The notes under the pieces are model-generated. The model saw nothing but the letters and a program-made list of their open reading frames with translations, made no database searches and was not told the DNA's origin. Source: Candidatus Cryptobacteroides onthequi (GTDB lineage Bacteria; Bacteroidota; Bacteroidia; Bacteroidales; UBA932). From it: a stretch of DNA of 53,466 nt. The DNA lies in NCBI GenBank assembly GCA_018066125.1, contig JAGHSA010000056.1, positions 1-53,466 on the forward strand. The letters run 5' to 3'. The position numbers and the translations under genes were made by a program. Positions 11,892 to 30,199 of the stretch are shown here, piece after piece. The first letter of the stretch is position 1. Every line of letters starts with the position of its first letter.

Positions 11892-13193
11892 ATGGAAGCA
11901 ATGAGGAAATCGAACTACTACATGTCGTTGGGCATGTTGGGGGCACTCTTTTTCGTGTTTGGACTGGTGTCCTGGGTAAATTCAATTCTTGTCCCTTATT
12001 TCAAGATTTCCTGTGAACTGCATAGTGAAGTGCAGGGCTATCTTGCCAATTTCGCATTTTACATTGCATATCTTGTGATGACTTTCCCGGCATCTGCGCT
12101 TTTGAGCAGGGTCGGTTTTAAGCATGGTGTGGAATACGGCCTGTGGATTCTTGGTACAGGTGCGCTTTTGTTCACTCCTGCAGCTTTGGTGAGGTCATAT
12201 AATCTGTTCCTGATAGGATTGTTCACAATGGGAACTGGTATGGCTGTTCTTCAGACTGCCGCCAATCCGTTCGTGACGATAATAGGACCTATTGAAAGCG
12301 CAGCCAGAAGAATCAGCGTGATGGGGATCTGCAATAAGTTCGCAGGTATTCTTGCACCTATCATCTTTGCTGCTGTTGTCATCAGGCCTTCTGACAAAGT
12401 TATCATTGATCAGGTTGGTGCCGGGCTTCTTGAGGGGCCGGCAAAGGAGGCTGCGCTGGATCAGATGATACGTGGTGTGATACCTCCATATATCGTTCTT
12501 GGCCTTTTTCTCTTTGTGTTCGGTTATTTCTTTTTCAAGTCTTCGATCCCGGAGGTCAACCCTGACGGTTCCGGTAAAGATGATGTGTCTGAGGAGACGG
12601 AGTCCAGATCCATCCTGAGTTATCCGTACCTTGTCCTGGGCGCATTTGCGCTCTTCTGCCATCTCGGTTCTCAGGCCGTTTCCATCAATACCATAATGGG
12701 ATATGCACAGAGCATGGGCGTAGATATGCTCCAGGCAAAGGTGTTCCCCTCTTTTACTCTCGGATGCATATTGTTCGGATACCTACTAGGCGTATTGTTC
12801 ATTCCGAAATACCTTTCTCAACAGAAAGCTCTGATCATATGTACTGTCACTGGGTTGGTATTGTCCTTCTGCGTAATACTGGCCGGCAGTCCTGTTCATC
12901 TGTTCGGACTGGATGCGGACTTGTCCATCTGGTTCCTCGTTTTGCTTGGTATACCGAACTCTTTGATATACGCAGGAATCTGGCCGCTGGCTATCCATGA
13001 TCTTGGCAGGCATACCTCAATCGGGTCATCTGTCATGGTGATGGGATTGTGTGCGAACGCTATTGTTCCATTGGTATATGCATGGCTGGTCGACATCACG
13101 GGAAGTGCCAGAGTGGGTTACTGGATTCTTGTCCCTTGCTTTATATACATGATATTCTATGCAGTAAAGGGCTGCAAGATAGAACGCTGGTAA
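11892..13193 (+). CDS. FHS-type MFS sugar permease, probably for an aminosugar
   Basis: The 433-aa inner-membrane protein has about 12 transmembrane segments. The pattern GALFFVFGLVSWVNSILVPYF, the loop GTGMAVLQTAANPFVTIIGP and AARRISVMGICNKFAG are typical of the fucose/glucose/GlcNAc (FHS) permeases of Bacteroidota, which take up sugars with protons. The next gene is nagA-like and a nagB-like gene lies downstream, so N-acetylglucosamine or a relative is the best guess for the substrate. ATG codons at 11892 and 11901 both work. It is the first gene of the operon and ends 12 nt before nagA. Fucose remains possible because of the nearby fucosidases. Confidence 0.87.
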   Translation: MEAMRKSNYYMSLGMLGALFFVFGLVSWVNSILVPYFKISCELHSEVQGYLANFAFYIAYLVMTFPASALLSRVGFKHGVEYGLWILGTGALLFTPAALVRSYNLFLIGLFTMGTGMAVLQTAANPFVTIIGPIESAARRISVMGICNKFAGILAPIIFAAVVIRPSDKVIIDQVGAGLLEGPAKEAALDQMIRGVIPPYIVLGLFLFVFGYFFFKSSIPEVNPDGSGKDDVSEETESRSILSYPYLVLGAFALFCHLGSQAVSINTIMGYAQSMGVDMLQAKVFPSFTLGCILFGYLLGVLFIPKYLSQQKALIICTVTGLVLSFCVILAGSPVHLFGLDADLSIWFLVLLGIPNSLIYAGIWPLAIHDLGRHTSIGSSVMVMGLCANAIVPLVYAWLVDITGSARVGYWILVPCFIYMIFYAVKGCKIERW

Positions 13194-13205
13194 ATAATAC
13201 ACGGT

Positions 13206-14381
13206 ATGAACAGATTCAAACTGACAGGTGGGGAGATAATCACTCCTTTCCAAAACCTTGGAGTTGGGACCGTCCTTGTTGAAAACGGAACAATTATCGG
13301 TGTTGAACGTGGTATTGTTGAAGGCGACGATTTCCAAAATATCGATGTGACAGGGCATTATGTGATGCCTGGATTCATAGATATCCACTCGCATGGAGCC
13401 GGGAACGCTGATTTTATGGATTGTACGGCAGAAGCCTGCCTTACGATTGCACGTGAGCACGCAAGACATGGGACAACTCTGCTTTATCCAACGACACTTG
13501 CCTCCGATAATGAGGAAATGATGAGGTTTTTGGAGGTGTATGAACGCGTGAAAAATCAGAAAGAGGGCGCGGCATTCGGGGGACTGCATCTCGAGGGACC
13601 TTATTTCGCATATGAATTCCGTGGAGCTCAGGATCCCAGGTATCTCAAAAATCCGGATCCGTCAGATTATATGCCGATACTTGATGCCTCGTCCGACATA
13701 AAGAGGTGGAGTGTTGCTCCAGAGCTTCCGGGGGCATTGGATTTCGGACGTATGCTCAGGCAGAGGGGGATACTTCCTTCAATCGCCCATACCAGTGCGA
13801 TTTATGATGACGTGGTGGAGGCATATGATGCAGGATATACTCTCATCACGCATTTCTATTCATGTATGAATGGGGTTGTAAGGCGCAATGCCTTCCGCCA
13901 TGCTGGTTGCATTGAAGCCGGATTTCTTCTCGATGATATGTCACTGGAAGTGATTGGAGACGGGATACACGTGCCGAAAGAACTGTTGAAGCTTATCCTC
14001 AAGAACAAGGACGTCGATAAAGTGATCCTTTGTACAGACTCGATGAGGGGAGCAGGGATGCCGGAGAATGCAACAAGCATCCTCGGAAGCTTGGAAAAGG
14101 GTCAGACCGTCTATCTTGAAGATGGTGTTGCCAAAGTCATGGACAGATCTTGTTTTGCCGGCAGTATCGCGACTACTGACAGATTGGTTCGTACTATGCA
14201 TTTCTTGGCCGGGCAACCCTTGACTGATGCGGTCAGGATGATTTCGGCCAATCCTGCCGCAATTATGGGGGTAGGTGACAGAAAGGGACGCATACAAAAG
14301 GGATATGATGCTGATATCGTCGTGTGCGGCAGAGATTTGTATGCGTGCGAGACATATGTAATGGGCAATAGAGTGTTTTAA
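13206..14381 (+). CDS. nagA: NagA-like N-acetylglucosamine-6-phosphate deacetylase
   Basis: The 391-aa cytoplasmic amidohydrolase is expected to remove acetate from GlcNAc-6-P. Metal-site motifs are visible: HSH at 61-63 in GFIDIHSHGAG, HLEGPYF with Glu130, AHTSA, ITHFYSCMNG and the catalytic Asp in CTDSM (about 278). The HxH form resembles two-metal NagA enzymes such as that of Bacillus, not the E. coli type. Substrate-binding segments differ from the textbook enzyme: HFYSCMNG instead of HLYNAMT, and TDSM instead of TDA. An epimer such as GalNAc-6-P or ManNAc-6-P cannot be excluded. It lies between the permease and an exported oxidoreductase in one operon. Confidence 0.82.
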   Translation: MNRFKLTGGEIITPFQNLGVGTVLVENGTIIGVERGIVEGDDFQNIDVTGHYVMPGFIDIHSHGAGNADFMDCTAEACLTIAREHARHGTTLLYPTTLASDNEEMMRFLEVYERVKNQKEGAAFGGLHLEGPYFAYEFRGAQDPRYLKNPDPSDYMPILDASSDIKRWSVAPELPGALDFGRMLRQRGILPSIAHTSAIYDDVVEAYDAGYTLITHFYSCMNGVVRRNAFRHAGCIEAGFLLDDMSLEVIGDGIHVPKELLKLILKNKDVDKVILCTDSMRGAGMPENATSILGSLEKGQTVYLEDGVAKVMDRSCFAGSIATTDRLVRTMHFLAGQPLTDAVRMISANPAAIMGVGDRKGRIQKGYDADIVVCGRDLYACETYVMGNRVF

Positions 14382-14395
14382 AGACGTAAAATATC

Positions 14396-15394
14396 ATGAA
14401 AAAGATTGCAAGCTTATTCTTGACTGTGATAGCCACAGTTTCATCCATTTCAGCGCAGACTAAAATCGGTATCATCGGCCTGGATACATCACATTCGATT
14501 GCTTTCACAAAACTCCTTAATGATAAAAATAGCGAGGACCGTTTTGTCAGGGAATTCGAGGTTGTAGCGGCGTACCCTTATGGAACGCGGAACATCGAGT
14601 CTGCAACTTCCAGGATACCGAAGTATGTAGACGAAATTCAGCAGTATGGCGTTGTCGTCACTGACTCCGTTGCAGAACTGCTTGAACAGGTGGATTGTGT
14701 CTTCCTCGAGACAAATGACGGTAACCTTCATCTGGAACAGGCTGTAGAAGTGTTTAAATCAGGCAGGAAAATCTATATCGACAAACCGCTTGGTGCGACG
14801 CTTGGCCAGGCCATCGCAATCTATGAAGTCGCAGAACGTTATGGGTCAACGTTCTTCTCTTCATCGGCAGTACGTTTTACGCCCCAGAATGTGAAGCTCA
14901 GGAACGGTGACTACGGGGCAATAATCGGTGCCGATGTTTATTCCCCTCATTCTATCGAACCTACACATCCGGATTTCGGGTATTATGGGATCCACGGTGT
15001 TGAGGAACTGTTCACTGTCATGGGGACAGGATGCAAGTCCGTATCAAGGACTCATAATGAAGCTGGAGATGTGGTTGTCGGTCTTTGGGAAGGGGACAGG
15101 ATCGGTTCATTCCGTGCAATCGTAAAAGGGCCGTATCTGTTCGGAGGTACTGCTTTCACGGCCTCAAAGGCTTATCCCACCGGAGGGTATTCCGGGTATA
15201 AAGTCCTCCTCGACCAGATTCTGAGGTTCTTTGAAACTGGAGAGTCACCTGTCTCAAAAGAGGAGACGCTGGAACTTTTCACGTTCATGAAGGCCGCAAA
15301 CATGAGTCTTGATGCGGGTGGCGCGCCTGTCAGCATGGCAAAGGCCAGAAAGGCAGGGGAGAAGGATGCGAAGAAACTCCTGAAAAAACTATAA
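14396..15394 (+). CDS. Exported Gfo/Idh/MocA oxidoreductase 1
   Basis: The 332-aa product has a Sec signal (cleavage near ISAQ, residues 20-21) followed by a Rossmann fold starting KIGIIGLDTSH. The family's catalytic lysine motif is present as DKP (Lys130). Family members bind NAD or NADP tightly and oxidise or reduce hydroxyl groups of sugars. Free NAD is not expected in the periplasm, so this enzyme should carry its cofactor permanently and return the hydride within the reaction or pass it to a partner. The Tat or Sec route is undecided: there is no twin arginine, although cofactor-loaded members often use Tat. It follows nagA by 14 nt and precedes a second oxidoreductase by 2 nt. The substrate is unknown. 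Confidence 0.82.
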   Translation: MKKIASLFLTVIATVSSISAQTKIGIIGLDTSHSIAFTKLLNDKNSEDRFVREFEVVAAYPYGTRNIESATSRIPKYVDEIQQYGVVVTDSVAELLEQVDCVFLETNDGNLHLEQAVEVFKSGRKIYIDKPLGATLGQAIAIYEVAERYGSTFFSSSAVRFTPQNVKLRNGDYGAIIGADVYSPHSIEPTHPDFGYYGIHGVEELFTVMGTGCKSVSRTHNEAGDVVVGLWEGDRIGSFRAIVKGPYLFGGTAFTASKAYPTGGYSGYKVLLDQILRFFETGESPVSKEETLELFTFMKAANMSLDAGGAPVSMAKARKAGEKDAKKLLKKL

Positions 15395-15396
15395 GG

Positions 15397-16716
15397 ATGA
15401 AATATCCATCGTATGTGATAATGGCCGTTTTGTTTCTCTCTCTCTTATCGTGCAGTGAGGGAGAAAAAACCATGGTGATGATAGATCCGGGACACTATCA
15501 TGCTGCATTGATTCAGAAGAACCATCTTCCCGGTGTCTCTGATATAGTCAGAGTATATGCCCCTGAATGTATGGAATTGGACTCTTACCTGTCCACTGTC
15601 CGCTCGTTCAATCAAAGGGAGGACGATGCGACGGGATGGAGGGAAGAATTGCATATATCAGACTGTTTCCTTGATTCTCTTCCGCCTGCTTCCAAAGGCG
15701 ATTTCGTGGTTCTTGCAGGAAAGAATCGGAACAAGGCCACGTATATCAAAAGGGCGATAGAGTGTGGGTACAGCGTCCTCTCTGATAAGCCGATGGCTAT
15801 TACCGGCGAAGGTTATGAGTCGCTTGTTTCTGCTTATGAACTTGCGAAGAAAAAGGGACTGGTAATATGCGATCTGATGACAGAACGACATGACGTGCTG
15901 AATGCGATTGTCCGCGATATCGTATCAGACAGGGAATCATTTGGAGATATAACCGGTGTTTCCATATCAAGTGTCCATCATTTTTTCAAGAATGTTAACG
16001 GAGCCTCTCTTAGGCGCCCGATGTGGTACTACGACGTAAGACAGCAGGGGGAGGGCATCGCTGATGTCACAACTCATCTCATAGATCTCATATTCTGGCA
16101 GTGTATGCCTGATGTGGCTGTGACTCCATCGGATATCACTGAACTTGAAGCATGTCATTATCCGACATCTGTTTCTCTTGAGCAGTATGAGAGATCTACC
16201 GGTGCACAGGCATTCCCGGATTATCTTTCAGCTGATGTCTGCCCTGACGGCATCCTCAATGTCATGTCTAACGGCAGGATTGGTTTCAGGTTGAAGTCAA
16301 TACCTGTTTCGGTCAGTGTGAGATGGGATTATGAACCTGTTGAAGGAGGCGGTGACACATCGGAATCATTGTATGATGGGACAAAGGCTTCTGTACGGAT
16401 GGTGCAGAATGTAGGAACAAATTTTGATCGCCAGTTGTTATTGAACGTTTCTTCGTCATCTGAAGGGAGTTTGCTGGAAAAACTCAAAAACAGCTATCCT
16501 GATATGATATGCACTCGGCTCGGTGACGGCAGGTGGCTCCTAGATATGCCACAGGATAAGAAACCAGGGCACGAAGCTCATTTCAATATGGTTGCAGCGT
16601 CATTTCTTGAAATGATAGACAGGCATGCAGTGCCTCTTTGGGAGAAAACCAACACACTGACAAAATACTATATTACTACCAGGGCAGTCCAATTATCTTC
16701 GCTAAATGAAGATTAA
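15397..16716 (+). CDS. Exported Gfo/Idh/MocA-like oxidoreductase 2, lipoprotein
   Basis: The 439-aa product has a lipoprotein signal with lipobox LLSC (Cys19). The early MVMIDPGHYHAALIQK segment and the later GEGIADVTTHLIDLIFW stretch match the Bacteroidota group of putative oxidoreductases with a special C-terminal domain (I recall Pfam Oxidoreduct_C). The lysine motif is DKP in VLSDKPMAI. The nucleotide-binding loop at the start is not a classical GxGxxG, so cofactor use is less certain than for its neighbours. It lies 2 nt behind oxidoreductase 1, and such proteins often occur in pairs, suggesting a shared substrate. It is likely anchored in the periplasm or outer membrane. A gap of 79 nt separates it from nagB. 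Confidence 0.78.
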   Translation: MKYPSYVIMAVLFLSLLSCSEGEKTMVMIDPGHYHAALIQKNHLPGVSDIVRVYAPECMELDSYLSTVRSFNQREDDATGWREELHISDCFLDSLPPASKGDFVVLAGKNRNKATYIKRAIECGYSVLSDKPMAITGEGYESLVSAYELAKKKGLVICDLMTERHDVLNAIVRDIVSDRESFGDITGVSISSVHHFFKNVNGASLRRPMWYYDVRQQGEGIADVTTHLIDLIFWQCMPDVAVTPSDITELEACHYPTSVSLEQYERSTGAQAFPDYLSADVCPDGILNVMSNGRIGFRLKSIPVSVSVRWDYEPVEGGGDTSESLYDGTKASVRMVQNVGTNFDRQLLLNVSSSSEGSLLEKLKNSYPDMICTRLGDGRWLLDMPQDKKPGHEAHFNMVAASFLEMIDRHAVPLWEKTNTLTKYYITTRAVQLSSLNED

Positions 16717-16762
16717 ATTTCGAAAAATCATCATTTTCTGTCTAATACATGACATACATTTG
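16715..16762 (+). promoter_or_regulatory. Putative promoter of the nagB-susCD operon
   Basis: TACATTTG at 16755-16762 fits the -7 consensus exactly, with the nagB start 33 nt downstream. No good TTTG lies at -33. Upstream, aaatttcgaaaaatc (16715-16729) shares 11 of 15 positions with the operator motif found next to the regulator gene, including the TCGAA core. That resemblance is weak evidence for control by the same protein. Confidence 0.4.
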
Positions 16763-16795
16763 TTAAAACTGTTTTGACTATTAAGCTAAATAAAA

Positions 16796-17560
16796 ATGAT
16801 TGAACTGAATGCGGATAAATTGAGGGTCAAGATATTTGATACCAGAGAAGAGATGGGAGAGTATGCTGCGTGTGAGGCAGAATCATATCTCAGGTCATTG
16901 TTGGAAACAAAGGAAGAGATAAATTGTGTGTTCGCTGCTGCTCCTTCTCAGGATGATATCCTTGCCAGTCTGGTGAAAAAGGATATATGCTGGGAGAGAA
17001 TCAATGCTTATCACATGGATGAGTATGTGGGACTGAAAAAAGAGGATCCTGAATCTTTCGGTAACTATTTGAATGAACACATATTCTCTTTGGTTCCTTT
17101 CAAGTCTGTGAATTACATTGCCGCAGACAGTAGCTGGACGGCGGAGCAGTTGTGTGACGAATACTGCAAAAAGCTTTCTGGTATCGAGATCGATGCTGTC
17201 TTTATGGGCATAGGAGAGAATGGTCATATTGCATTCAATGATCCTCAGGTCGCGGATTTTAAAGATGACAAGATTGCCAAGATTGTGGATCTTGATGATG
17301 TGTGCCGCATGCAGCAGGTACACGATGGATGTTTCCCGACTATTGATGACGTCCCGAAGCAGGCAATTTCTCTTACCATACCGACGATGATGAGCGCCCG
17401 CAGACTTTTCAATGTCGTGCCAACTAGTTTCAAGGCAAAAGCTGTCAAGGATACAATCAATGGCGAATTGTCAGAGATGTGTCCTGCAACAATTTGCAGA
17501 TACCATCCTGACGCGACGCTGTATCTTGACAGTGCAAGCGCTGAACTGATATATCGATAA
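16796..17560 (+). CDS. nagB: NagB-like glucosamine-6-phosphate deaminase
   Basis: The 254-aa cytoplasmic protein should convert glucosamine-6-P to fructose-6-P and ammonia. It shows INAYHMDEYVGL with Asp75, and MGIGENGHIAFNDP with His144 in the position of the catalytic His. The usual phosphate loop TGSTP is replaced by AAAPSQDDIL (about 47-56), so this is a divergent member of the family and may act on another sugar phosphate. It opens the long operon that carries SusC/SusD; the next gene follows after 11 nt. Together with nagA it indicates that the imported glycan contains an N-acetylated aminosugar. Confidence 0.82.
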   Translation: MIELNADKLRVKIFDTREEMGEYAACEAESYLRSLLETKEEINCVFAAAPSQDDILASLVKKDICWERINAYHMDEYVGLKKEDPESFGNYLNEHIFSLVPFKSVNYIAADSSWTAEQLCDEYCKKLSGIEIDAVFMGIGENGHIAFNDPQVADFKDDKIAKIVDLDDVCRMQQVHDGCFPTIDDVPKQAISLTIPTMMSARRLFNVVPTSFKAKAVKDTINGELSEMCPATICRYHPDATLYLDSASAELIYR

Positions 17561-17571: not shown

Positions 17572-18897
17572 ATGAAGAATACCAATCAGGAAGTCGATTT
17601 AGGGCTTCGAAATTTCATAAAGAGCCTTGGATGTATGGCAGGAGGTGCTGCTTTTCTGGCATCGACAGCCCCATGGTTGAGCTCTTGCACCCCGGAGAAG
17701 CTTGCGGAGGTGAAGAAAGAGAAGGCGCGAGTTGCGCTTATCGGTTCTGGATCCAGAGGGCAGTATCATATTCATAACCTTATGAATATCCCTCATGCCG
17801 AGCTTGTGGCCATTTGTGATAATTATCAGGTCAATCTCGATGCGGCATTGACAATCTGTCCGACAGCAAAGGGCGTCAAGGACTATCGTGAGGTCCTGAG
17901 TGATCCTACAATAGATGGGGTAATCATCGCTACTCCGTTGTACAACCATGCATCGATTACCCTGGATGCCATCAGTGCTGGAAAGCACGTGTTCTGTGAA
18001 AAGTCTATGGCTCGTACCATGGACGAGTGCCTTGCTGTCTACAACTCATATGTGAACCACAATGTGGCCTTGTATTACTGCATGCAGAGAATGTATGATG
18101 AAAAATACATAAAGGGTATCAAACAGATTAAAGATGGCCTTATCGGTGATGTGGTCGGAATGCGCTGCCATTGGTTCCGTAATGCTGATTGGCGCAGGCC
18201 TGTTCCGTCTCCGGAACTTGAGAGACAGATCAACTGGAGATTGTATAAAGAATATTCAGGCGGTCTTATGACAGAACTGGCAACCCATCAGTTGGAAGTG
18301 TGTAACTGGGCTGCCGGGAAAATTCCGACTCAGGTTGTCGGCATGGGTGACATTGTATATTGGAAAGACGGACGTGAGGTTTATGACAGCGTGAGCCTGA
18401 CATACCGTTATGCCGATGGAAGAAAGATCAATTACGAATCCTTGATTTCAAATAAATACAATGGAATGGAGGATCAGATTCTTGGCCATAACGGAACAGT
18501 AGACCTTACCAGAGGAGTCTATTATCTTGAGGAAGATAACATGATTCCTGGAATGCGTCAGCTTCTGGACCAGATCAAGACCAAGGCTTTTGCATCTATC
18601 CCTACCGCTGGTCCGAGCTGGAAGCCTGAATTGAAATCTGATTATGTCCCTCATCCTCTCGTTAGTGGCGGTATCAGTGTAAATGCCGGGCAGAGCATGA
18701 TCTCTGCAGACCATGATGGTTCTGATGAGATTCTTTCAGCATTCTGCCAGTCATGCATTACTGGAGAAAAGGCGGACGATGTTGTAGGTGAGGCATACAG
18801 CTCCACTATGTTATGCCTTCTTGGGAATAAGGCAATGGAGGAAGGCCGTATGGTTGAATTCCCGGAGGAATACAAGATACCTTATATGAAATTCTAG
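17572..18897 (+). CDS. Exported Gfo/Idh/MocA oxidoreductase 3, lipoprotein
   Basis: The 441-aa product has an N-terminal LRNFIKSLGCMAGGAAF stretch that looks like a degenerate Tat signal (one Arg only), then WLSSC, so Cys39 is a likely lipidated residue. The Rossmann motif is VALIGSGSRGQYHIHNL. The catalytic lysine lies in EKS (143-145) where most relatives have EKP, a noticeable change. DVVGMRCHWFRNADWRRP and GGLMTELATHQLEVCNW are typical of sugar oxidoreductases of this family. Members of GH109, a NAD-dependent glycosidase family with the same fold, also begin with a GxGxRG loop, so glycosidase activity is an alternative. It lies 11 nt after nagB and 6 nt before a small membrane protein gene. 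Confidence 0.82.
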   Translation: MKNTNQEVDLGLRNFIKSLGCMAGGAAFLASTAPWLSSCTPEKLAEVKKEKARVALIGSGSRGQYHIHNLMNIPHAELVAICDNYQVNLDAALTICPTAKGVKDYREVLSDPTIDGVIIATPLYNHASITLDAISAGKHVFCEKSMARTMDECLAVYNSYVNHNVALYYCMQRMYDEKYIKGIKQIKDGLIGDVVGMRCHWFRNADWRRPVPSPELERQINWRLYKEYSGGLMTELATHQLEVCNWAAGKIPTQVVGMGDIVYWKDGREVYDSVSLTYRYADGRKINYESLISNKYNGMEDQILGHNGTVDLTRGVYYLEEDNMIPGMRQLLDQIKTKAFASIPTAGPSWKPELKSDYVPHPLVSGGISVNAGQSMISADHDGSDEILSAFCQSCITGEKADDVVGEAYSSTMLCLLGNKAMEEGRMVEFPEEYKIPYMKF

Positions 18898-18903: not shown

Positions 18904-19146
18904 ATGAAAGATATTGTAATTACGGGCAAGATGATCAAGGCTGAGATTCTTATCGCTTTGGGGTGTCTTGTCTTTGCTGAGTGCCTCAATCTTTTTGCCA
19001 TCATAAAGTATTCGAGGCCTGTAGTTGAACTTGTCAGTATGATAGGCTATGTCGTAATCACAGCGGTTCTGGCATATCTGATCCTGGCAGTCATCAGACT
19101 GGTGGTCAAATTTGTATTATGGATTGTTAACAGAATAAAGAAATGA
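18904..19146 (+). CDS. Small two-helix membrane protein, oxidoreductase-coupled
   Basis: The 80-aa protein has two hydrophobic helices, about 17-34 (LGCLVFAECLNLFAIIKY) and 42-72 (YVVITAVLAYLILAVI onward), and a Lys/Arg-rich C-terminus (NRIKK). By the positive-inside rule this tail is probably cytoplasmic. There is no enzyme motif and no heme or metal site. Its TGA overlaps the ATG of the next oxidoreductase gene (ATGA), so the two are translated together. I seem to recall similar small proteins beside exported oxidoreductases in other Bacteroidota, but cannot verify this. It could anchor or assist the oxidoreductase or deliver reducing equivalents. The function is unknown. Confidence 0.7.
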   Translation: MKDIVITGKMIKAEILIALGCLVFAECLNLFAIIKYSRPVVELVSMIGYVVITAVLAYLILAVIRLVVKFVLWIVNRIKK

Positions 19147-20507
19147 CGACAAGAAGAGATTTCATCAAACAGGCGGCTGCCGCTTCAGCATTCATTACAG
19201 TCGGTGGACTGGACGCAGTTGCAGGCGGCAAAAAGAAGACGGCTGCAGCATCTGCGAAACGTATCATCGGAGCCAATGATACAATCCGCCTTGCTGTCAT
19301 CGGTGTGAACTCACGTGGCAAGGCACTCGCAAAGAATTTTTCTAAAATGCCTCTGTGTGAGGTGACTCATCTCTGTGACTGTGACTCACTTGCTCTTGCA
19401 GCCTGTCAGGCGGAAGTCTGCAAGATAACCGGCAAGACTCCGGTAGGTGTCAAAGATATCCGTGACCTGTTGGCAATCCCTGAGATTGATGGTGTAGTCA
19501 TAGCTATGCCTGACCATTGGCATGCGCCTGCCGCCATGATGGCACTTCAGGCTGGGAAGCATGTATATCTTGAAAAACCTACTTCTCATAATCCGGCGGA
19601 GAATGAGATGCTTTTGAAGGTCGCACGCAAACACCCTGATCTTGTGGTAACGGTTGGAAACCAGCGCAGGTCATGGCCAAGAGTCCAGCAGGCGATACAG
19701 GAGCTTCATGACGGAGCAATCGGCGAGGTTCATTATGCCAAGTCCTGGTACGTAGCCAACAGACCTTCTATTGGAAAGGGAAAGGTCGTACCGGTACCGG
19801 AAAATCTTGATTGGAACCTATGGCAGGGACCCGCTCCACGAGTTGAAGAATTCAAGGATAATCTCATTCACTATAACTGGCATTGGTTCTGGCACTGGGG
19901 AACAGGTGAGGCCCTCAACAATGGAACACATTTCGTTGACCTTATCAGGTGGGGACTTCAGGTCGGATTCCCGACTCAGGTGTCTTCAGTAGGCGGAAGA
20001 TGGCGCTATGATGATGACTGGCAGGCTCCAGACACTCAGATGATCACATTCCAATTCGGTGACAAGGGAGCTGGTTCATGGGAAGGAAGAAGCTGCAACA
20101 GTTCACCTGTAGATGGATATGGCTTCGGCGTTGCTTATTACGGAGAAAAGGGTTCTCTCATCCTGAGCGGTGGCAATGACTACAAGATCCTTGATATGGC
20201 AGGTAAGGTCGTGAAGGATGTGAAAAGTGATGTCGCCTACAAGCAGGGAGATCTTCAGAATCCATCTGAAATGCTTGATGGCTTCCACTTCCAAAACTGG
20301 TTTGATGCGATCAAGAAGGGTGATCCTCTCAACTCTACTCTGGAAGAGGCGTGCATGAGCACACAACTTGTGCAGCTGGGAAATATCGCTATGAGGGTCG
20401 GTCACTCCATACAGGTCAATCCGAAGAATGGCTATATCATAGGTGACCCTGAAGCGCAGAAGTATTGGGGACGTGACTATGAACCGGGATGGGAGCCAAT
20501 CGTCTGA
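19143..20507 (+). CDS. Tat-exported Gfo/Idh/MocA oxidoreductase 4
   Basis: The 454-aa product begins MTTRRDFIKQAAAASAF, a clear twin-arginine signal (Arg4, Arg5), so it is exported folded with its nucleotide bound. The Rossmann strand is IRLAVIGVNSRGKALAKNF. The motifs DHWHAPA, EKP with Lys145, HYNWHWFWHWGTGEALNNGTH and VDLIRWGL define the subgroup, and the His-rich set probably lines the sugar site. The same subgroup occurs again as oxidoreductase 5 of this operon, clearly a paralogue. It is translationally coupled to the small membrane protein upstream and lies 27 nt before susC. The reaction is probably oxidation or reduction of a sugar hydroxyl; the position is unknown. Confidence 0.87.
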   Translation: MTTRRDFIKQAAAASAFITVGGLDAVAGGKKKTAAASAKRIIGANDTIRLAVIGVNSRGKALAKNFSKMPLCEVTHLCDCDSLALAACQAEVCKITGKTPVGVKDIRDLLAIPEIDGVVIAMPDHWHAPAAMMALQAGKHVYLEKPTSHNPAENEMLLKVARKHPDLVVTVGNQRRSWPRVQQAIQELHDGAIGEVHYAKSWYVANRPSIGKGKVVPVPENLDWNLWQGPAPRVEEFKDNLIHYNWHWFWHWGTGEALNNGTHFVDLIRWGLQVGFPTQVSSVGGRWRYDDDWQAPDTQMITFQFGDKGAGSWEGRSCNSSPVDGYGFGVAYYGEKGSLILSGGNDYKILDMAGKVVKDVKSDVAYKQGDLQNPSEMLDGFHFQNWFDAIKKGDPLNSTLEEACMSTQLVQLGNIAMRVGHSIQVNPKNGYIIGDPEAQKYWGRDYEPGWEPIV

Positions 20508-20534
20508 AAAAACTAACAACTAAATAACACTATT

Positions 20535-23500
20535 ATGGCATCAATTAAACATCTGGCAGCGGCATTGGTATTCTGTGCCGTAACGTCGGTAGGCCCTTGT
20601 GAGCTCGTTTCGTCAGCCGTCAATTCATACGGCGAGGCCATGCAGCAGCCTGCATCCAAGGTGATCAAGGGTACTGTCACAGATTCTAATCATGAACCAC
20701 TCATAGGTGCGAGTGTCATCATCAAAGGCTCATCAGAAGGTGTTACAACAGGAAATGATGGCGAGTTTGAGTTGTATGCTGCCCCTGGTTCTGTCCTTGT
20801 CGTGTCCTATCTGGGATACTATGACACTGAAATCACTGTCGGTTCATCCAGTATATATGCTGTGGTCCTCTCTGAAGATGCAGAGTATCTCGAGGATGTA
20901 GTCGTGATCGGTTTCGGCACCGTCAAAAAGGCAAATCTTACCGGCTCCGTCTCTGCAGTCAGGTTTGATGAGAAGATGACTAGCCGTGCTTCTCTTAACC
21001 TTGCTACAGCTCTGACGGGAATGAATGCCGGTCTGAGCATTTCGCAGACCAATGGCACTCCTGGATCAGAAGGATTCTCGATACTTGTCAGAGGACAGGG
21101 CACAATGAATGACTCGTCTCCTCTCGTTCTGATAGATGGAATTCCGGGTGCGATCAACGATGTGAATCCTGCAGACGTTGAAAGTGTTTCTGTCCTTAAA
21201 GATGCGGCCTCATCGGCTATCTACGGAAGCCGTGCTGCAAACGGAGTTATCCTTATCACCACCAAGATGGGTGGTGAAGGCAAGTTCGAAGTCGTATATA
21301 ACGGTTATGCAGGTTTTGAGAGTGCAGCCACTGACGTGGAGTTCGTGTCAGACATGGCGACTCATATGGAGCTTGTCAACGAGTCTGAAGGCCGTGAGAA
21401 ATATCCTCAGGCTGCAATTGACATGTGGAGGACAGAGTCTGCCAAAGGAAATCCTCTCTATCCAAATACAAACTGGTACGATGAGATGCTCAATACCTCA
21501 TTGCTTCAGGAGCATACCTTGGCTGTGAGAGGCGGTACACAGAGGAGCAATATTGCAATGTCTCTCGGATTCCTTGACAATAAGGGTATCATTGACAATT
21601 CTGGTTTCAAGAAGTATTCATTCCGTATCAATGCGGCAACGAAAATCACTGATTGGCTTGAGCTTGGAGGGAATGTGTATGGATTCTGGTCGGATAGAGA
21701 TCCGATCCACATAGATTCGTTCTTTTCCAGCATCAGAAATACCATCCCTGGAGTTACACCTAAGGCAGATGACGGCAGGTATGGTGGAAACATGTTTAAG
21801 GATATGGTGCAGGTCTCAAATCCACGTGCGGTTGTAGATAATGTGAGAGGAAACTATGAGAGACAGAAAGTTGGAGTGAAGTTTTTCTCAAAGGTCAATT
21901 TCCTGAAATATTTCCAATGGGAGACCAGCATCGGTGGTGATTTCGACAATCGCAGGAATTGGGAGTATACCATGCCTTATTCCCTCTGGAACTTCCAGAC
22001 CGAAGTTGAGACTCCTTCCAGCACAGCGGTTGATCAGTTGCTGAATTCATCGATCCGTTATTATACGACAGTGGTCAATACACTCCTTAGATTCAATTCA
22101 ACTGTTGCAGGCAACCATCACATTTCAGCACTTGTGGGTTTTGACCAGCAGTACAACAGAATGGACAACTTCAATGCGACGAAGCAGGATGTCCTTGGAA
22201 ATGACCAGCTCTATGTCATGGATGCTGCGACTGATATGCTTTCAGTCAAGGGAAATGCTACTGATGACGCACTTCAGTCTTACTTCGGAAGAATCAATTA
22301 TGATTATAAGGGAAAATACCTGTTTGAGGCCAATGCACGCTATGATGGCTCATCCCGCTTCTCCAGAGAAAACAGATGGGGATTCTTCCCGTCATTCTCT
22401 GCTGGTTGGAGACTTACAGAAGAAGAATTTGCTGCGCCTCTCAAGACTGTGTTTGATGATCTGAAATTCAGGGCTTCATATGGTCAGTTAGGAAACAACA
22501 GGATTGGAGATTATACTTACCAATCTGTATATGGACTACTGCTTTATCCTATGGGAGGTCAGCTTCAGCAGGGTGTTGCGGCAACGACTCTTGCAAACAG
22601 TACTGTGAAGTGGGAGACCACAACCATGACAAATGTAGGTGTCGACTTCGCGATGTTCCGCAATCGTCTCCATGTCAGTGCAGACTGGTATGACAAGACA
22701 ACTGATGATATCCTGGCAAAGAAGCCTATCCCGTACACAATGGGCTTTAACACTCCATCATGGCAGAATATCGCCAAAATGAGAAACAGGGGTGTTGAAT
22801 TCGAAGCATCGTGGAACGGTACAGTCGGGAAGGATTTCGCATATGGTATTTCAGGAAACCTCTCAACAGCGAAGAATACAGTTCTTGCCTTTGGTGAGGA
22901 TGAAGCAAGCGGTCTTTATATGATCAGTGAGGGAAAGCCTTACCATGCTTTCTATCTTCTTGAGTTCGACCATATTATTCAGAGCCAATCTGAAATAGAC
23001 CAGCTCATTGCTGACGGTTATACTTTTGCAAATGAAATCGGTGGAAAGCCGTGCCCGGGAGATTTGCTTTATAAGGATACAAACGGTGACAAGGTATTCA
23101 ACCTGGAAGACCGTACAGTGCGCGATTACTCAACCCTTCCTTCAATGACCTATGGCCTTTCTTTCAACGCTTCATATAAGGGTGTTGACTTCATGGTTAT
23201 GGGTCAGGGACGGAGCGGTGCACATGGATATTGGGGGAATGACGGTTTCAATACCTTCAATATCAATGAGGGTTTCCTTCAGAGAGCAGTCGTTCTTGAC
23301 AGATGGACCGAGAAGAATCCATCAACAAAGTACCCTCGTCTCCTTACAAGCGCATCCACACTCAATACAGTCAACAGTGATTACTGGCTTTACAATACTT
23401 CATATTTCAGAATCAAGTCTATCCAGCTCGGATATACACTCCCATCAAGATTTACACAGAAGTTCAGCGTAAAGAGACTCAGAATCTATACCAACCTCGA

Positions 23501-23606
23501 GAATTACTTTACATTCACACATTTCGAGGGGTACAATCCGGAAAATCCATCAATGGCTTATCCTCTCATGAAGCAGTGTGTATTCGGTATCAATGTGACA
23601 CTTTAA
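20535..23606 (+). CDS. SusC-type TonB-dependent outer-membrane transporter
   Basis: The 1023-aa product starts with a signal peptide. A carboxypeptidase-regulatory-like domain follows (VIKGTVTDSNHEPLIGASV to about residue 120), then the TonB-dependent plug (EDVVVIGFGTVKKANLTGSV, NPADVESVSVLKDAASSAIYG) and a long beta-barrel ending VFGINVTL. SusC proteins import glycan fragments across the outer membrane, powered by TonB, together with the SusD lid encoded next (13 nt gap). Its place within a run of oxidoreductase and nag genes identifies the locus as a utilisation system for an aminosugar-containing glycan. Length is normal and the frame is intact. Confidence 0.95.
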   Translation: MASIKHLAAALVFCAVTSVGPCELVSSAVNSYGEAMQQPASKVIKGTVTDSNHEPLIGASVIIKGSSEGVTTGNDGEFELYAAPGSVLVVSYLGYYDTEITVGSSSIYAVVLSEDAEYLEDVVVIGFGTVKKANLTGSVSAVRFDEKMTSRASLNLATALTGMNAGLSISQTNGTPGSEGFSILVRGQGTMNDSSPLVLIDGIPGAINDVNPADVESVSVLKDAASSAIYGSRAANGVILITTKMGGEGKFEVVYNGYAGFESAATDVEFVSDMATHMELVNESEGREKYPQAAIDMWRTESAKGNPLYPNTNWYDEMLNTSLLQEHTLAVRGGTQRSNIAMSLGFLDNKGIIDNSGFKKYSFRINAATKITDWLELGGNVYGFWSDRDPIHIDSFFSSIRNTIPGVTPKADDGRYGGNMFKDMVQVSNPRAVVDNVRGNYERQKVGVKFFSKVNFLKYFQWETSIGGDFDNRRNWEYTMPYSLWNFQTEVETPSSTAVDQLLNSSIRYYTTVVNTLLRFNSTVAGNHHISALVGFDQQYNRMDNFNATKQDVLGNDQLYVMDAATDMLSVKGNATDDALQSYFGRINYDYKGKYLFEANARYDGSSRFSRENRWGFFPSFSAGWRLTEEEFAAPLKTVFDDLKFRASYGQLGNNRIGDYTYQSVYGLLLYPMGGQLQQGVAATTLANSTVKWETTTMTNVGVDFAMFRNRLHVSADWYDKTTDDILAKKPIPYTMGFNTPSWQNIAKMRNRGVEFEASWNGTVGKDFAYGISGNLSTAKNTVLAFGEDEASGLYMISEGKPYHAFYLLEFDHIIQSQSEIDQLIADGYTFANEIGGKPCPGDLLYKDTNGDKVFNLEDRTVRDYSTLPSMTYGLSFNASYKGVDFMVMGQGRSGAHGYWGNDGFNTFNINEGFLQRAVVLDRWTEKNPSTKYPRLLTSASTLNTVNSDYWLYNTSYFRIKSIQLGYTLPSRFTQKFSVKRLRIYTNLENYFTFTHFEGYNPENPSMAYPLMKQCVFGINVTL

Positions 23607-25236: not shown

Positions 25237-25247
25237 TGCGTATCAAT

Positions 25248-26591
25248 ATGCAATCTCGGAGAGAATTCATAAAAACGAGTATATTCGGAGCTGCGGCCCT
25301 CTCAATGAGAGGGCTGTATTGCCCTGGCCTTTCAGCACGCAGCTACGCTTCAATTGCAGGGGCAAATGACAGGATATGTGTGGCTGCTGTCGGGGTAAAT
25401 GCACGTGGTGGTGCCGTGGCAAATACATTTGCCGGGCGAAGGGGATGTGAGGTCTCGCATGTATGCGACGTCGACAGCCGGGCTTTAAGCAGATGCCGCG
25501 GTATACTTGCAGACAAGCAGGGTTTCTCTCCCAGAATAGAGAAGGATTTCCGAAAAGTCCTGTTGGACAAGGACGTGGACGCTGTGATGATAGCAACTCC
25601 AGATCATTGGCATGTGCCGGCATCCATTATGTCTATGCAGGCGGGAAAACATGTGTACTGTGAGAAACCGGCGAGCTACGCTCCCAGAGAGGGCGAGCTC
25701 CTGATTGAGGCTGTCAGAAAGTATGACAGGGTGTATGAGATCGGTCTCCAGAGACGATCATGGACGAACGTTCTCGAGGGCATCCAAGCAATCCGTGACG
25801 GTGTCGTAGGCAACATCCATTTCGGGCGTGGATGGTACACCAACAATCGCCCGTCCATCGGTTTTGGGAAGGAAGTTCCTAATCCTGAATGGCTTGACTG
25901 GGATCTTTGGCAAGGTCCTTCTCCGCATGTGCCGTATAAGGATAATTATGTGCATTATAACTGGCACTGGTTCTATAGATGGGGAGGAGGAGAGGCGACA
26001 AACAATGGTACCCATATGGTGGATATCCTCAGATGGGGCATGGAACTCGACTATCCGACCTCTGTCAATTCTATGGGAGGACGTTATTATTATCAGGATG
26101 ATCAGGAGACACCTGACACTCAGGTAATCAATCTGTCATTTCCCGGGGGAAAGATGATCTCATATGAGGGCCGCAGCTGCAATCCGATGACCAGTGACAG
26201 CAACTCTGTAGGAGTGATGTTCTTTGGTGATAAAGGCAGTATCCTCATCACCGGCAGCAACGGATATCAGATATTTGACCTGAACAACCAGATTGTCAGG
26301 AAGAAATACAGTGACATTCCTATCGATCCTCGCAACAAGGTCAATCCTTCTGAAGGGCTGGATGCTCTGCATGTGGATAATTTCCTCAATGCCATCCGAG
26401 GTACCGCGAAGGTGAACTGCTCTGCTGAGGATGGTCACAAGAGCACTCTGCTGATGCAGCTTGGTATGATTTCGCATCGTGTGGGTCACAATCTCAATAT
26501 AAATCCCCAAAATGGTCATGTCCTTAGTGACAGAAAAGCAATGAAATTGTGGAGCTGCGAGTACGCTCCCGGTTACGAAGTCAAGATATGA
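25248..26591 (+). CDS. Tat-exported Gfo/Idh/MocA oxidoreductase 5
   Basis: The 447-aa product has the twin-arginine signal MQSRREFIKTSIFGAAAL. ATG at 25248 is preferred over the GTG at 25236, which would overlap the susD stop codon. It is a paralogue of oxidoreductase 4: ICVAAVGVNARGGAVANTF, DHWHVPA, EKP (Lys140), HYNWHWFYRWGGGEATNNGTH and VDILRWGM align with the same segments there. Two related but distinct enzymes in one operon suggest two sugar units or two steps, for example oxidation and later reduction. Its TGA overlaps the ATG of the lyase gene that follows (ATGA), so enzyme and lyase are made together. Confidence 0.87.
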   Translation: MQSRREFIKTSIFGAAALSMRGLYCPGLSARSYASIAGANDRICVAAVGVNARGGAVANTFAGRRGCEVSHVCDVDSRALSRCRGILADKQGFSPRIEKDFRKVLLDKDVDAVMIATPDHWHVPASIMSMQAGKHVYCEKPASYAPREGELLIEAVRKYDRVYEIGLQRRSWTNVLEGIQAIRDGVVGNIHFGRGWYTNNRPSIGFGKEVPNPEWLDWDLWQGPSPHVPYKDNYVHYNWHWFYRWGGGEATNNGTHMVDILRWGMELDYPTSVNSMGGRYYYQDDQETPDTQVINLSFPGGKMISYEGRSCNPMTSDSNSVGVMFFGDKGSILITGSNGYQIFDLNNQIVRKKYSDIPIDPRNKVNPSEGLDALHVDNFLNAIRGTAKVNCSAEDGHKSTLLMQLGMISHRVGHNLNINPQNGHVLSDRKAMKLWSCEYAPGYEVKI

Positions 26592-29500: not shown

Positions 29501-30199
29501 TCCAAAGTCAGGAGTTATACCAGAAGCAGCTGCTTTCTCAATATGGAGAGAGATGATGTGCCGGCGGTCATCATCATCGATGACGTCTTGTCACTATCCG
29601 GACCGTTCAAGACATTCTGGAAGGTAAATACGCTATGTGAGCCGGAGATGACGGATCATGGCGTCTGTCTGGCCGCTTATGGGGGGAAATCCAATACGCG
29701 TGCCTACGTCACGGCGCTGATGCCATCGGCTGAAGATATGATAACCGAAGTGTCAAGGATCAGAGATTCTTCCAATATTCTAGGCCCGCAGTATCAGATC
29801 CGATATCCACGTCCTGAGGCTGATGCCTTCCAATATGTCGAGAGTGCCCAGGAGCAGTCATTGCACCATCGATATGTCAATATGATCCAGGTTACACGTG
29901 ATGGATACAAGCCTTTGGATGCAAATTGTGTAAAAACCGGCAATTCGCTTCTGGTGGAGGTCGGCGACAGGTTTGTGCTCCTTTCTGGTGACGGGAGACT
30001 CCGCTCAGACTCCGTGTCATTCGAAATCCGGCAGGGGGAGGGAAAACAAGTCTTTGTGACCGATATCGCATCTGGCAGCTGGATGCTCATCCGGGATGGT
30101 GTGGTCGACAGGAAAGTCGTTGTTGAAGACAGGAATAATTCAGCGTCAGTCTTTTGTGTCCCGGGATCATACGAGTTGCGTATATCCACATCAGACTAG
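26588..30199 (+). CDS. Two-enzyme fusion: GH28-like beta-helix plus heparinase II/III-like lyase
   Basis: The 1203-aa exported product has a signal peptide ending near MMFSQ. Residues about 30-380 form a right-handed beta-helix of the pectinase kind. NGDGI and SDDSIVLAA recall the GH28 catalytic NTDG and GDDC segments, but the GH28 GHG and RIK motifs were not found. A beta-sandwich-like linker follows (about 400-490). From about 500 comes an alpha/alpha-toroid typical of heparinase II/III and alginate lyases, with RHNQGYDYG (His700), then HQHCDAGSFQLFCGGR (His859, His861, Asp863) at the start of the C-terminal beta-sheet domain. Such lyases cut uronic acid-containing chains. The start at 26588 overlaps the preceding stop codon. 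It is the last gene of the susCD operon. One or both halves may be active. Confidence 0.85.
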   Translation: MIKRFRLLFAVVLLFFPAMMFSQELTVRPEDCPGESISDKIQYALDKISAKGGGTILFHDTPVYHIDRAIALPSHTRMVIDNCKIKLVDHVFDNIIRSANIIPDEDHPFEYAARLEEAHDISIVGEGDAVVEGADDFYADINPRTGKYEKWVGDFWGWRNFSILMSYVHGFRITGITLQKTHSWGMVLTNGCTDGLVSDITLHTTVKNGDGISIIQGGSDIIIQNVSGETSDDSIVLAAFDETRWSNPKYIYPLLPVRYSDYSYGADIHDVTIRNVHVSGVYHDIIFLPSRPQIYNVWCQNISDGDKGGKNVVVRFYGNGQYGKGFKPGNVHHIYLDGIVSNYARAAVEKLAPVFDSRFDNLIQNNAKGVVVSEPEPPATDRNPDIRLSYRFPKKGLYRIYADVKRLDEHDLRPGEPVPERKIVMQLNNSRPTARIVSDLDHHTGHWLGNFNLRRKNEIKIWLPEQISFDSLRIVPYEDVKTPDAVRKYKPESVPPSAHPRLWVTPQSLAQVRSRLETGENARYWKLVESKALQVYPYHVNTLVEEYYNAELEDVIITKAFYSLMTGNRSIGQESVRLLRDYFSVLEYGNVRRGDITRQIGASILTAALVYDWCHDLVSPSDRDLFYSKSMDLARIMEVGWPPYRDNVVNGHASEAQVNRDLLAMSIAFYENDKEAYRLVSYQMEQIIRMRDFEYQSPRHNQGYDYGIFRHGWEMRAAWIFKRMLGRAMFSDNISALCDYWMHMRLPGGDRLADGDRFPGDYKMAAETLLLDYSYSENPFLKTLFGMLGGFECMEKNPILFLLVNDPSLKPEPLTGLPKAIDYGDVLGGQTCRTGWDLSADSRDVVYDIRGGGFHFGNHQHCDAGSFQLFCGGRIITNVGIYYAYGSPYDFNYNKRSVSHNSVLIFDPDEALVGRSLKNDGGSRFNQITPSSPEHTVSDPVFAYGKVLAVAAEETDAPHYWFKADLTDAYTSKVRSYTRSSCFLNMERDDVPAVIIIDDVLSLSGPFKTFWKVNTLCEPEMTDHGVCLAAYGGKSNTRAYVTALMPSAEDMITEVSRIRDSSNILGPQYQIRYPRPEADAFQYVESAQEQSLHHRYVNMIQVTRDGYKPLDANCVKTGNSLLVEVGDRFVLLSGDGRLRSDSVSFEIRQGEGKQVFVTDIASGSWMLIRDGVVDRKVVVEDRNNSASVFCVPGSYELRISTSD

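What the first reader, a model, noticed from the sequence alone, without database searches (positions are those of the whole stretch)
11892..30199. Aminosugar utilisation locus with five exported oxidoreductases and no classical glycosidase
Seen in the sequence: an FHS permease, NagA-like and NagB-like enzymes, SusC/SusD and five Gfo/Idh/MocA proteins (14396, 15397, 17572, 19143, 25248), each with a signal, lipobox or Tat motif, plus a lyase fusion. No recognisable glycoside hydrolase lies between 11892 and 26587. Known: Gfo/Idh/MocA enzymes carry tightly bound NAD(P), GH109 uses the same fold to cleave glycosides through a transient redox step, and 3-keto-sugar chemistry with exported members has been described in gut Bacteroidota. 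Inference: glycosidic bonds of the imported glycan may be broken by oxidation, elimination and re-reduction in the periplasm, with NagA/NagB handling the released aminosugar. No DUF1080 hydratase-like or isomerase gene was seen here, so the locus would be a variant of known redox pathways.
Basis: partly seen in the sequence, partly recalled or inferred. Interest (0 to 1): 0.78.

Follow-up and report, generated by a model that had tools for sequence, protein, structure and literature searches.

The report
Sugar oxidoreductases paired with flavin transferase
A gut-type bacterium carries a gene cluster for eating amino-sugar glycans that contains five exported sugar oxidoreductases, and one of them belongs to a family that usually travels with an altered flavin-attaching enzyme, which suggests an unrecognised way of equipping exported sugar enzymes with a cofactor.

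Summary
The observation largely holds: NagP-, NagA- and NagB-like genes, SusC/SusD and five Gfo/Idh/MocA proteins (G1-G5) are there. "No glycosidase" holds only for the chosen interval: two GH29 genes lie just upstream, and the lyase gene is a heparinase II relative joined to a GH28-like helix. None of the five has the GH109 loop. G1 and G2 look Sec-exported and lack the Gly-rich NAD motif; G4 and G5 are distant relatives of BT2158 glycoside 3-dehydrogenase. In 47 of 54 named loci the two are within 300 bp. In a phylum sample, 9 of 9 Glu-type ApbEs and 15 of 18 related ones sit beside a Gfo/Idh/MocA-like gene, against 2 of 29 ordinary ApbEs. These ApbEs mostly lack a signal peptide; their partners are mostly Tat-like. 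Nine pairs lie near DUF1080 3-keto-glycoside hydrolase relatives. Best reading: a 3-keto-sugar pathway variant in which a cytosolic ApbE matures an exported dehydrogenase. What is attached, if anything, is untested; no known flavinylation motif was found.

The parts
6534..7955 (-). GH29-type alpha-L-fucosidase, third gene of the divergent apbE run
   Evidence: PF01120 290 bits; 12 bp from the next gene
7968..9731 (-). GH29-type alpha-L-fucosidase, second gene of the divergent apbE run
   Evidence: PF01120 236 bits; 8 bp behind apbE
9740..10537 (-). ApbE-like protein without recognisable signal peptide, Glu-type (Glu233 in place of the catalytic/Mg-binding Asp; GSSS loop in place of GGD)
   Evidence: PF02424 141.6 bits, cut-off 25.6; columns; clade 100/95
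10553..11797 (+). regulator (periplasmic-binding-like domain plus AraC HTH)
   Evidence: PF13377, PF12833
11892..13193 (+). FHS/MFS permease, GluP/NagP-like
   Evidence: PF07690, TIGR01272 over cut-off
13206..14381 (+). NagA, N-acetylglucosamine-6-phosphate deacetylase
   Evidence: TIGR00221 over cut-off
14396..15394 (+). G1, Gfo/Idh/MocA fold, Sec-like signal, GLDTSH in place of GxGxxG, DKP kept
   Evidence: PF01408 33.4 bits; conservation in 29 sequences
15397..16716 (+). G2, Gfo/Idh/MocA-like lipoprotein with Oxidoreduct_C domain, no Gly-rich motif; homologue of 4oo3
   Evidence: PF16490 254 bits, PF01408 24.2; 4oo3 E 1.2e-96
16796..17560 (+). NagB-like glucosamine-6-phosphate deaminase family protein
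   Evidence: PF01182 53 bits; TIGR00502 113.2 of 236.9
17572..18897 (+). G3, exported Gfo/Idh/MocA oxidoreductase, partner family of the ApbE-like protein
   Evidence: PF01408 71 bits; adjacency
19143..20507 (+). G4, Tat-type exported Gfo/Idh/MocA oxidoreductase, distantly BT2158-like
   Evidence: BT_2158_fam 148.4 of 750 bits; 8tdf E 7.6e-23; TIGR01409 20.9, cut-off 16.7
20535..23606 (+). SusC/RagA TonB-linked receptor
   Evidence: TIGR04056 901.6 bits
23620..25236 (+). SusD
   Evidence: PF07980 184.7 bits
25248..26591 (+). G5, Gfo/Idh/MocA oxidoreductase with Tat-like signal, 46% identical to G4
   Evidence: BT_2158_fam 136.7 of 750 bits; identity
26549..30199 (+). fusion of a GH28-like beta-helix with a heparinase II (PL21) relative
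   Evidence: 2fuq E 1.2e-73 over residues 506-1186; NF045571 313 of 600 and NF051861 34.6 of 600 bits
30276..32027 (+). right-handed beta-helix protein with a hydrophobic N-terminus, short resemblance to lacto-N-biosidase LnbX
   Evidence: PF13229 29.8 bits; 7v6m E 6.5e-10 over 148-229

Best explanation
The locus is a Bacteroidales polysaccharide-utilisation locus for a glycan that contains N-acetylhexosamine and probably a uronic acid. The heparinase II-like fusion makes the first cuts (inferred). SusC/SusD imports the pieces. G4, G5 and G3 carry out C3 oxidation and reduction of glycosides in the periplasm in the manner of the known 3-keto-glycoside pathway (inferred from families and neighbours). 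The permease imports the freed amino sugar for NagA/NagB (inferred). The new part is that G3 needs the cytosolic ApbE-like protein: I propose that it acts on folded G3 before export, most likely by attaching a nucleotide cofactor covalently, so that the cofactor is not lost in the periplasm. Shown: the gene content, the conserved pairing, the residue changes, the lack of a signal on most of these ApbEs and the Tat-like signals on most partners. Not shown: any reaction, any modification, the substrate.
For: Pairing: apbE within 300 bp of G3 in 47 of 54 named loci; within 260 bp in 16 of 19 whole-genome loci, the others being the window itself (pair about 7 kb apart) and two whose contig ends at one side of G3 with no apbE on the other. 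In two searches of 295 order genomes, 18 have G3 (E<=1e-60) and 9 the ApbE (E<=1e-25), 8 of them in genomes with G3. Phylum sample of 395: 9 of 9 Glu-type ApbEs lie beside a G3 homologue (gap at most 106 bp); of 18 Asp-type ApbEs with a remodelled loop 13 do at E<=1e-60 and 15 at E<=1e-8; of 29 ordinary ApbEs 0 do at E<=1e-60 and 2 at E<=1e-8. Residues: Glu at the catalytic Asp in 54 of 55, 11 of 11 far and 9 of 9 phylum sequences against Asp 23/Asn 6 of 29 controls; Ser 55/55, His 53/55, Asp125 55/55, Lys131 55/55 kept. Glu-type is one side of a 100/95 branch. 3-keto context: DUF1080 relatives near the pair in nine loci. Uronate context: UxuA and UxuB in 4, KdgK in 5 (one at 31%), KdgA in 4 of 23 nag loci. 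TatC is present.
Against: No D-x-x-[ST]-G-A-[ST] motif in the window proteins and 61 G3 sequences, nor in the 18 first and 10 second partners. AlphaFold2 on a natural in-frame read-through of an ApbE-G3 pair gave mostly confident domains but pTM 0.57, so no confident contact. One Glu-type ApbE (G289, L128) has no G3; three of 18 Asp-type ones have no Gfo neighbour and two of 29 ordinary ApbEs have one; five of 54 named loci show no ApbE (two of these cut beside G3); a 39% G3 relative in G325 lives with DUF1080 and without ApbE. At least four ApbEs look exported (L029, L031, L148, L156). 35 of 61 G3 signals have Leu in place of the first Tat Arg. UxuA is not found in this genome, which is 85% complete. 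In the window itself the pair is about 7 kb apart and on opposite strands.
Confidence: 0.5

Rival explanations
1. Ordinary GAG-type PUL: the heparinase II fusion, GH88 encoded elsewhere and NagA/NagB do the work; the Gfo/Idh/MocA proteins are side enzymes acting on inositols or trimming sugars, and ApbE serves another flavoprotein of the cell.
For: PL21 relative E 1.2e-73; four GH88 matches in the genome; the best NCBIfam score of G3 is inositol 2-dehydrogenase, below cut-off.
Against: The genome has a separate ordinary ApbE at C59; the ApbE type found here mostly follows G3, with one orphan; the lyase was seen only in L020 besides the window (flanks at most 10 kb, many shorter), whereas nag-G1-G2-apbE-G3 recur without it.
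Confidence: 0.22
2. The five proteins are GH109-like or GH188-like one-protein redox glycosidases.
For: Same fold and NAD-dependent C3 chemistry in GH109 and GH188 (passages of PMC10755693); 6t2b and 2ixa are weak phmmer hits of G3.
Against: GGHGG, the GH109 acid/base loop, is absent in all five; the best PDB hits of G3 and G4 are named dehydrogenase or DgpA; G3 relatives often lie near separate DUF1080 hydrolase relatives. GH188 residues were not tested.
Confidence: 0.1
3. The ApbE-like protein is a chaperone, FAD/NAD hydrolase or redox partner of G3 that attaches nothing.
For: No known flavinylation motif in the partners examined; two Mg-ligand positions altered; FAD-hydrolysing relatives exist (start of abstract of PMC4767422).
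Against: Catalytic Ser and His and the nucleotide-contact Asp and Lys are kept almost without exception.
Confidence: 0.25

Closest known systems
3-keto-glycoside pathway of gut Bacteroides (BT2157 DUF1080 hydrolase, BT2158 glycoside 3-dehydrogenase)
   Same: Exported Gfo/Idh/MocA dehydrogenases; relatives of the G3-ApbE pair lie near DUF1080 relatives; G4/G5 match the BT_2158 model below its cut-off.
   Different: No DUF1080 or isomerase in the window; has amino-sugar genes, two members without NAD motif, and an ApbE partner; 'apbe' does not occur in PMC11300592, and PMC9007349 was seen in passages only.
ApbE / FmnB FAD:protein FMN transferases
   Same: Fold family, Ser-His catalytic residues, nucleotide-contact Asp and Lys (FmnB Ser257, His273, Asp184, Lys190; passages of PMC8906456).
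   Different: Asp301 to Glu, the GGD/GGN loop remodelled to G-x-S-S with an insertion, usually no signal peptide, partner without the known motif.
Cytosolic ApbE of Klebsiella acting on a soluble fumarate reductase
   Same: Signal-less ApbE serving a particular oxidoreductase (section 6 of PMC12052999).
   Different: Partner here is an exported Gfo/Idh/MocA protein, not a fumarate reductase.
GH109 and GH188 NAD-dependent glycosidases
   Same: Fold and proposed C3 redox chemistry.
   Different: GGHGG loop absent; GH188 residues not tested.
Heparinase II (PL21, HepB)
   Same: 26549-30199 C-terminal part aligns over 681 residues with 2fuq.
   Different: Below the HepB equivalog cut-off (313 of 600); carries a GH28-like N-terminal helix.

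Membership tests
GH109 | GGHGG loop with the catalytic His | tested here: not met
   absent in G1-G5; the feature is taken from a reference title in PMC12269599 and PMC10755693 (passages)
GH109 | N-acetylgalactosaminidase activity with NAD | not testable with these tools
   needs enzyme assay
BT2158-type glycoside 3-dehydrogenase (NF058561) | score over the curated equivalog cut-off of 750 bits | tested here: not met
   G4 148.4, G5 136.7, G3 72 bits: related, not members
Gfo/Idh/MocA (PF01408) | score over cut-off of 24 bits | tested here: met
   all five; G2 only just (24.2)
Gfo/Idh/MocA (PF01408) | Gly-rich NAD-binding motif | tested here: inconclusive
   G3 GSGSRG; G4/G5 GVNSRG/GVNARG; G1, G2 absent
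3-keto-glycoside pathway | DUF1080 hydrolase or isomerase-type eliminase in the cluster | tested here: not met
   none on the window contig; DUF1080 relatives near the pair in nine other loci
ApbE FMN transferase | PF02424 domain over cut-off | tested here: met
   141.6 bits, cut-off 25.6
ApbE FMN transferase | Asp-Ser-His catalytic residues (FmnB Asp301-Ser257-His273) | tested here: not met
   Ser 55/55, His 53/55, but Glu 54/55 at the Asp
ApbE FMN transferase | target with D-x-x-[ST]-G-A-[ST] | tested here: not met
   0 of 61 G3, 0 of 18 first and 0 of 10 second partners
PL21 heparinase II | full-length match to heparinase II | tested here: met
   E 5.2e-74 over residues 7-686 of the C-terminal part
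PL21 heparinase II | over the HepB equivalog cut-off (600 bits) | tested here: not met
   313 bits
NagA | TIGR00221 over cut-off | tested here: met
   233.3 of 225.65
NagB | TIGR00502 over cut-off | tested here: not met
   113.2 of 236.9

The most novel reading that the evidence does not exclude
A clade of ApbE-like enzymes works in the cytosol on Tat-exported sugar dehydrogenases of the Gfo/Idh/MocA fold and ties a nucleotide cofactor to them covalently before export: FMN at an unknown site, or, most boldly, the nicotinamide mononucleotide half of NAD taken the way ApbE takes FMN from FAD. This would be a new post-translational modification that lets bacteria run NAD-type sugar redox chemistry outside the cytoplasm.
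Probability: 0.3. Interest if true: 0.92.

Novelty: new variant of a known kind. Interest (0 to 1): 0.7.

Why it matters
Periplasmic 3-keto-glycoside chemistry needs a redox cofactor where free NAD is not expected, and how exported Gfo/Idh/MocA enzymes keep theirs is, as far as I know, open. An altered ApbE next to such enzymes in several classes of one phylum makes that question testable with one co-expression and one mass spectrum. It would also add a component to a glycan-breakdown route of gut bacteria. In the held library I found no paper that links ApbE with MocA-type enzymes or with DUF1080 (searches; text of PMC8238504 and PMC11334425 searched for 'gfo' with no hit); most subscription papers are not held.

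Tried and rejected
GH109 membership: rejected on the missing GGHGG loop. Flavinylation of another window protein: no motif found in the proteins, and its six-frame scan of ORFs over 150 residues printed none; the DKPLGAT of G1 lacks the Ser/Thr at position 4, and G1 is missing from the solitary apbE-G3 pairs. PDB search with the N-terminal part of 26549-30199 alone gave nothing up to E 10, and Pfam only a weak beta-helix. Mirror-tree correlation of G3 and ApbE (r 0.70, n 48) is no higher than for other gene pairs of the cluster (0.44-0.76), so it shows shared inheritance, not contact. AlphaFold2 contact test: pTM 0.57 with 36 rows, seven of them paired: inconclusive, leaning against a stable complex. 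A search for one Ser/Thr shared by the partners found only Thr121 (28 of 30) and Thr309 (29 of 30), which I recall as generic to the fold. The G4 count of 51 printed was discarded because G3 cross-hits it.
Full report
Setting. The window is contig C7 of a 2.96 Mb, 75-contig assembly, 85% complete. The named records that G3 finds are titled Bacteroidales, Bacteroidia, Bacteroidetes or genera of that kind. The genome holds 18 PF01408 matches, five of them in this window.

What is there. Reading from the regulator (10553), the plus strand carries permease, nagA, G1, G2, nagB, G3, G4, susC, susD, G5, the lyase fusion and a beta-helix gene, with gaps from -43 to 245 bp. Divergent from the regulator runs apbE, then two GH29 genes. 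All five Gfo/Idh/MocA proteins exceed the Pfam cut-off, G2 only just.

Two kinds of Gfo/Idh/MocA protein. G3, G4 and G5 have a recognisable Rossmann motif and Tat-like signals. G1 and G2 have Sec-type signals (a signal peptide and a lipobox, judged by eye) and no Gly-rich motif; GLDTSH is conserved in the 29 G1 sequences. A protein exported unfolded cannot carry NAD along, so it fits that the Sec-exported members lost the motif; that link is my inference. G2 has a solved homologue, 4oo3, of unnamed function. G4 and G5 are 46% identical and are distant relatives of BT2158, which passages of PMC11300592 describe as a periplasmic glycoside 3-dehydrogenase. The best PDB hits of G3 are 6a3f and DgpA, followed closely by an inositol 2-dehydrogenase, 3cea; I recall the first two as C3 sugar dehydrogenases.

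The conserved operon. Scanning one genome per species with G3 gave 54 named loci, close relatives by design and many cut by contig ends. Of these, 23 hold nag genes: nagA 22, nagP 21, nagB 20, G2 20, apbE 20, G1 19, G4 16; 22 show neither nag nor G1/G2. A common order is permease-nagA-nagB-G1-G2-apbE-G3-G4, for instance in Bacteroides xylanisolvens XB1A (L025). Close SusC/SusD relatives (76-77%), a close G5 (69%) and the lyase were seen, within flanks of at most 10 kb, only in the nearest relative L020. UxuA and UxuB relatives lie in 4, KdgK in 5 (one, L020, at 31%) and KdgA in 4 of the nag loci, which with the heparinase II relative points to a GlcA/GlcNAc glycan. This is suggestive only: a GH20 relative lies near four loci, one of them with nag genes, sialic acid genes lie near L045, and UxuA was not found in the window's own genome.

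ApbE is the usual partner of G3. apbE lies within 300 bp of G3 in 47 of 54 loci: 43 upstream on the same strand, 2 upstream divergent, 2 downstream. It is about 7 kb away in two (L020, L052) and not seen in five (L021, L022, L051, L069, L070), of which L022 and L069 end within 70 bp upstream of G3. In whole genomes it is within 260 bp of G3 in 16 of 19 loci, down to G3 identities near 40%; the three others are the window, whose apbE is about 7 kb off, and L005 and L018, whose contigs end at one side of G3 and show no apbE on the other. In two searches of 295 order genomes G3 occurs in 18 and this ApbE in 9, of which 8 have G3; the ninth (G289, L128) is an orphan.

It is a separate kind of ApbE. 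Profile A1 gives 357-380 bits to the three G3-linked ApbEs of the class sample and at most 142 to the others listed. In 55 sequences the nucleotide-contact Asp125 and Lys131 (FmnB Asp184 and Lys190) and catalytic Ser197 are invariant and His206 is kept in 53, but the catalytic, Mg-binding Asp (FmnB Asp301) is Glu in 54. The residue after GG (Asn216 in FmnB, a Mg ligand with ADP and ATP) is replaced, with an insertion, by G-x-S-S. The correspondence rests on the phmmer alignment and a constant offset of 20 in numbering. Controls: 29 unpaired ApbEs have Asp (23) or Asn (6) at the Glu position. Eleven far relatives, ten of them beside G3 and one the orphan of G289, all keep Glu and the Ser insertion.

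Phylum-wide test. In 395 phylum genomes, 30 ApbEs pass E 1e-42, three of them in the window's genome and G105. Of the other 27, nine are Glu-type and all nine lie beside a G3 homologue (gap at most 106 bp). Eighteen have Asp and a remodelled loop: 13 lie beside a G3 homologue at E 1e-60, two more beside a weaker one (L160, L161), and three have none (L151, L153, L155). The control depends on the threshold: of 29 ordinary ApbEs (GD or GE loop), none has such a neighbour at E 1e-60, but two (L121, L125) have a Gfo-like gene at E 1e-8, the threshold at which the counts above are 9 of 9 and 15 of 18 (control flanks about 0.9-1.5 kb). In 7 of the 9 Glu-type and 12 of the 18 Asp-type loci the ApbE stands between two Gfo/Idh/MocA-like genes. 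In those 12 both dehydrogenases carry a Tat-like motif, twin-arginine in all but one protein of L164 (Arg-Lys), while most of the ApbEs begin close to their domain; some predicted starts are over-long. In five of the seven Glu-type trios the second dehydrogenase has no visible signal. Exported-looking ApbEs exist: L029 and L031 (Tat-like), L148 and L156 (hydrophobic N-terminus); L020 and L040 would have a hydrophobic stretch if an early GTG or TTG is the start. Asp-type first partners have mostly lost the catalytic Lys (one of 11 keeps it), so the system is not uniform. The Glu-type ApbEs form one side of a 100/95 branch; their G3 partners do so with weaker support, 82/77, in a tree with flagged long branches.

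Link to 3-keto-glycoside chemistry. DUF1080 relatives (49-61% identical to the one in L129) lie near the pair in L059, L076, L081, L130, L131, L133, L134, L136 and L138, directly beside apbE in L076, L131 and L133; L061 and L063 hold 25% relatives. Among the 54 named loci this is 3 (L059, L061, L063), so DUF1080 is a companion of the more distant pairs rather than of the nag operon. L134 and L137 also hold IolE-like isomerase-fold genes, matched weakly. PMC9007349 (passages) cites DUF1080 protein BT2157 as a 3-ketotrehalose hydrolase. In the window's own genome 4 of the 13 other Gfo/Idh/MocA matches lie within 1.3 kb of a DUF1080 or AP_endonuc_2 match (C27, C19, C5, C42), and TatC lies beside the C19 group.

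Mechanism. I propose that G3 folds in the cytosol with its cofactor, that ApbE acts on it there, and that it then leaves by a Tat-type route. The argument is from location and partnership: mostly signal-less ApbE, Tat-like partner, kept nucleotide site, coupling in several classes of the phylum. PMC11334425 (passage) argues that flavinylation serves to prevent flavin loss outside the cytosol; here the same need would apply to a sugar dehydrogenase. No known flavinylation motif was found in the partners examined, and the structure test gave no confident contact (pTM 0.57), so the modification itself is a hypothesis.

Novelty. The held papers give no link: 'ApbE' with 'MocA' finds one unrelated paper; DUF1080 or 3-keto-glycoside terms with ApbE terms are not combined in any of the 15 papers listed of 16; 'gfo' does not occur in PMC8238504 or PMC11334425. 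The main paper on the broad-specificity 3-keto pathway that I recall (Nature 2024) is not held, so absence there is not claimed. The parts are of known kinds; the coupling and the altered ApbE are new to me, hence 'new variant of a known kind'. The mended control (2 of 29 at the laxer threshold) does not change my odds, because the contrast with 24 of 27 remains large.

Noticed in passing
own genome contig C54, 50134-52256 (L074): Second ApbE-G3 pair in the same genome, G3 75% and ApbE 41% identical to the window's, without nag genes labelled in the stretches fetched.
   Followed up: partly
own genome contig C19, about 19100-23400: TatC lies beside AP_endonuc_2, DUF1080 and a Gfo/Idh/MocA match, so the genome has a conventional-looking 3-keto cluster next to its Tat gene.
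   Followed up: no
window 26549-30199: One chain joins a GH28-like beta-helix to a heparinase II relative; among the loci it was seen only in L020.
   Followed up: partly
L149, L150, L152, L154, L157-L160, L162-L165: Gfo-ApbE-Gfo trios with Tat-like motifs on both dehydrogenases; the first partners examined have mostly lost the catalytic Lys (EKP to EAP).
   Followed up: partly
L121 and L125: Two ordinary ApbEs also have a Gfo-like gene (126 and 120 bits) nearby, so the coupling may reach beyond the remodelled-loop ApbEs.
   Followed up: no
L129 (G325), 3363-11543: Cluster of DUF1080, G4-like, G3-like, and (named by eye and by similarity to neighbours) mannonate oxidoreductase-, UxuA-, KdgK- and KdgA-like genes without ApbE: a likely glucuronide 3-keto cluster.
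   Followed up: partly
L020, 1-1052 (-): Lactate-racemase-like (Lar_N, PF09861) gene next to a PfkB-like kinase and apbE in the closest relative of the locus.
   Followed up: no
L023, L131, L133: GH29-like fucosidase genes lie near apbE-G3 here too (29-39% identity to the window's).
   Followed up: no
L045, 13231-16688: An N-acetylneuraminate-lyase-like gene (named by eye) and a NanM/sodium symporter fusion follow G4, hinting at a sialic acid supply for NagA/NagB.
   Followed up: no
window 40522-44044: Four genes of dTDP-rhamnose biosynthesis type, not part of the locus.
   Followed up: no
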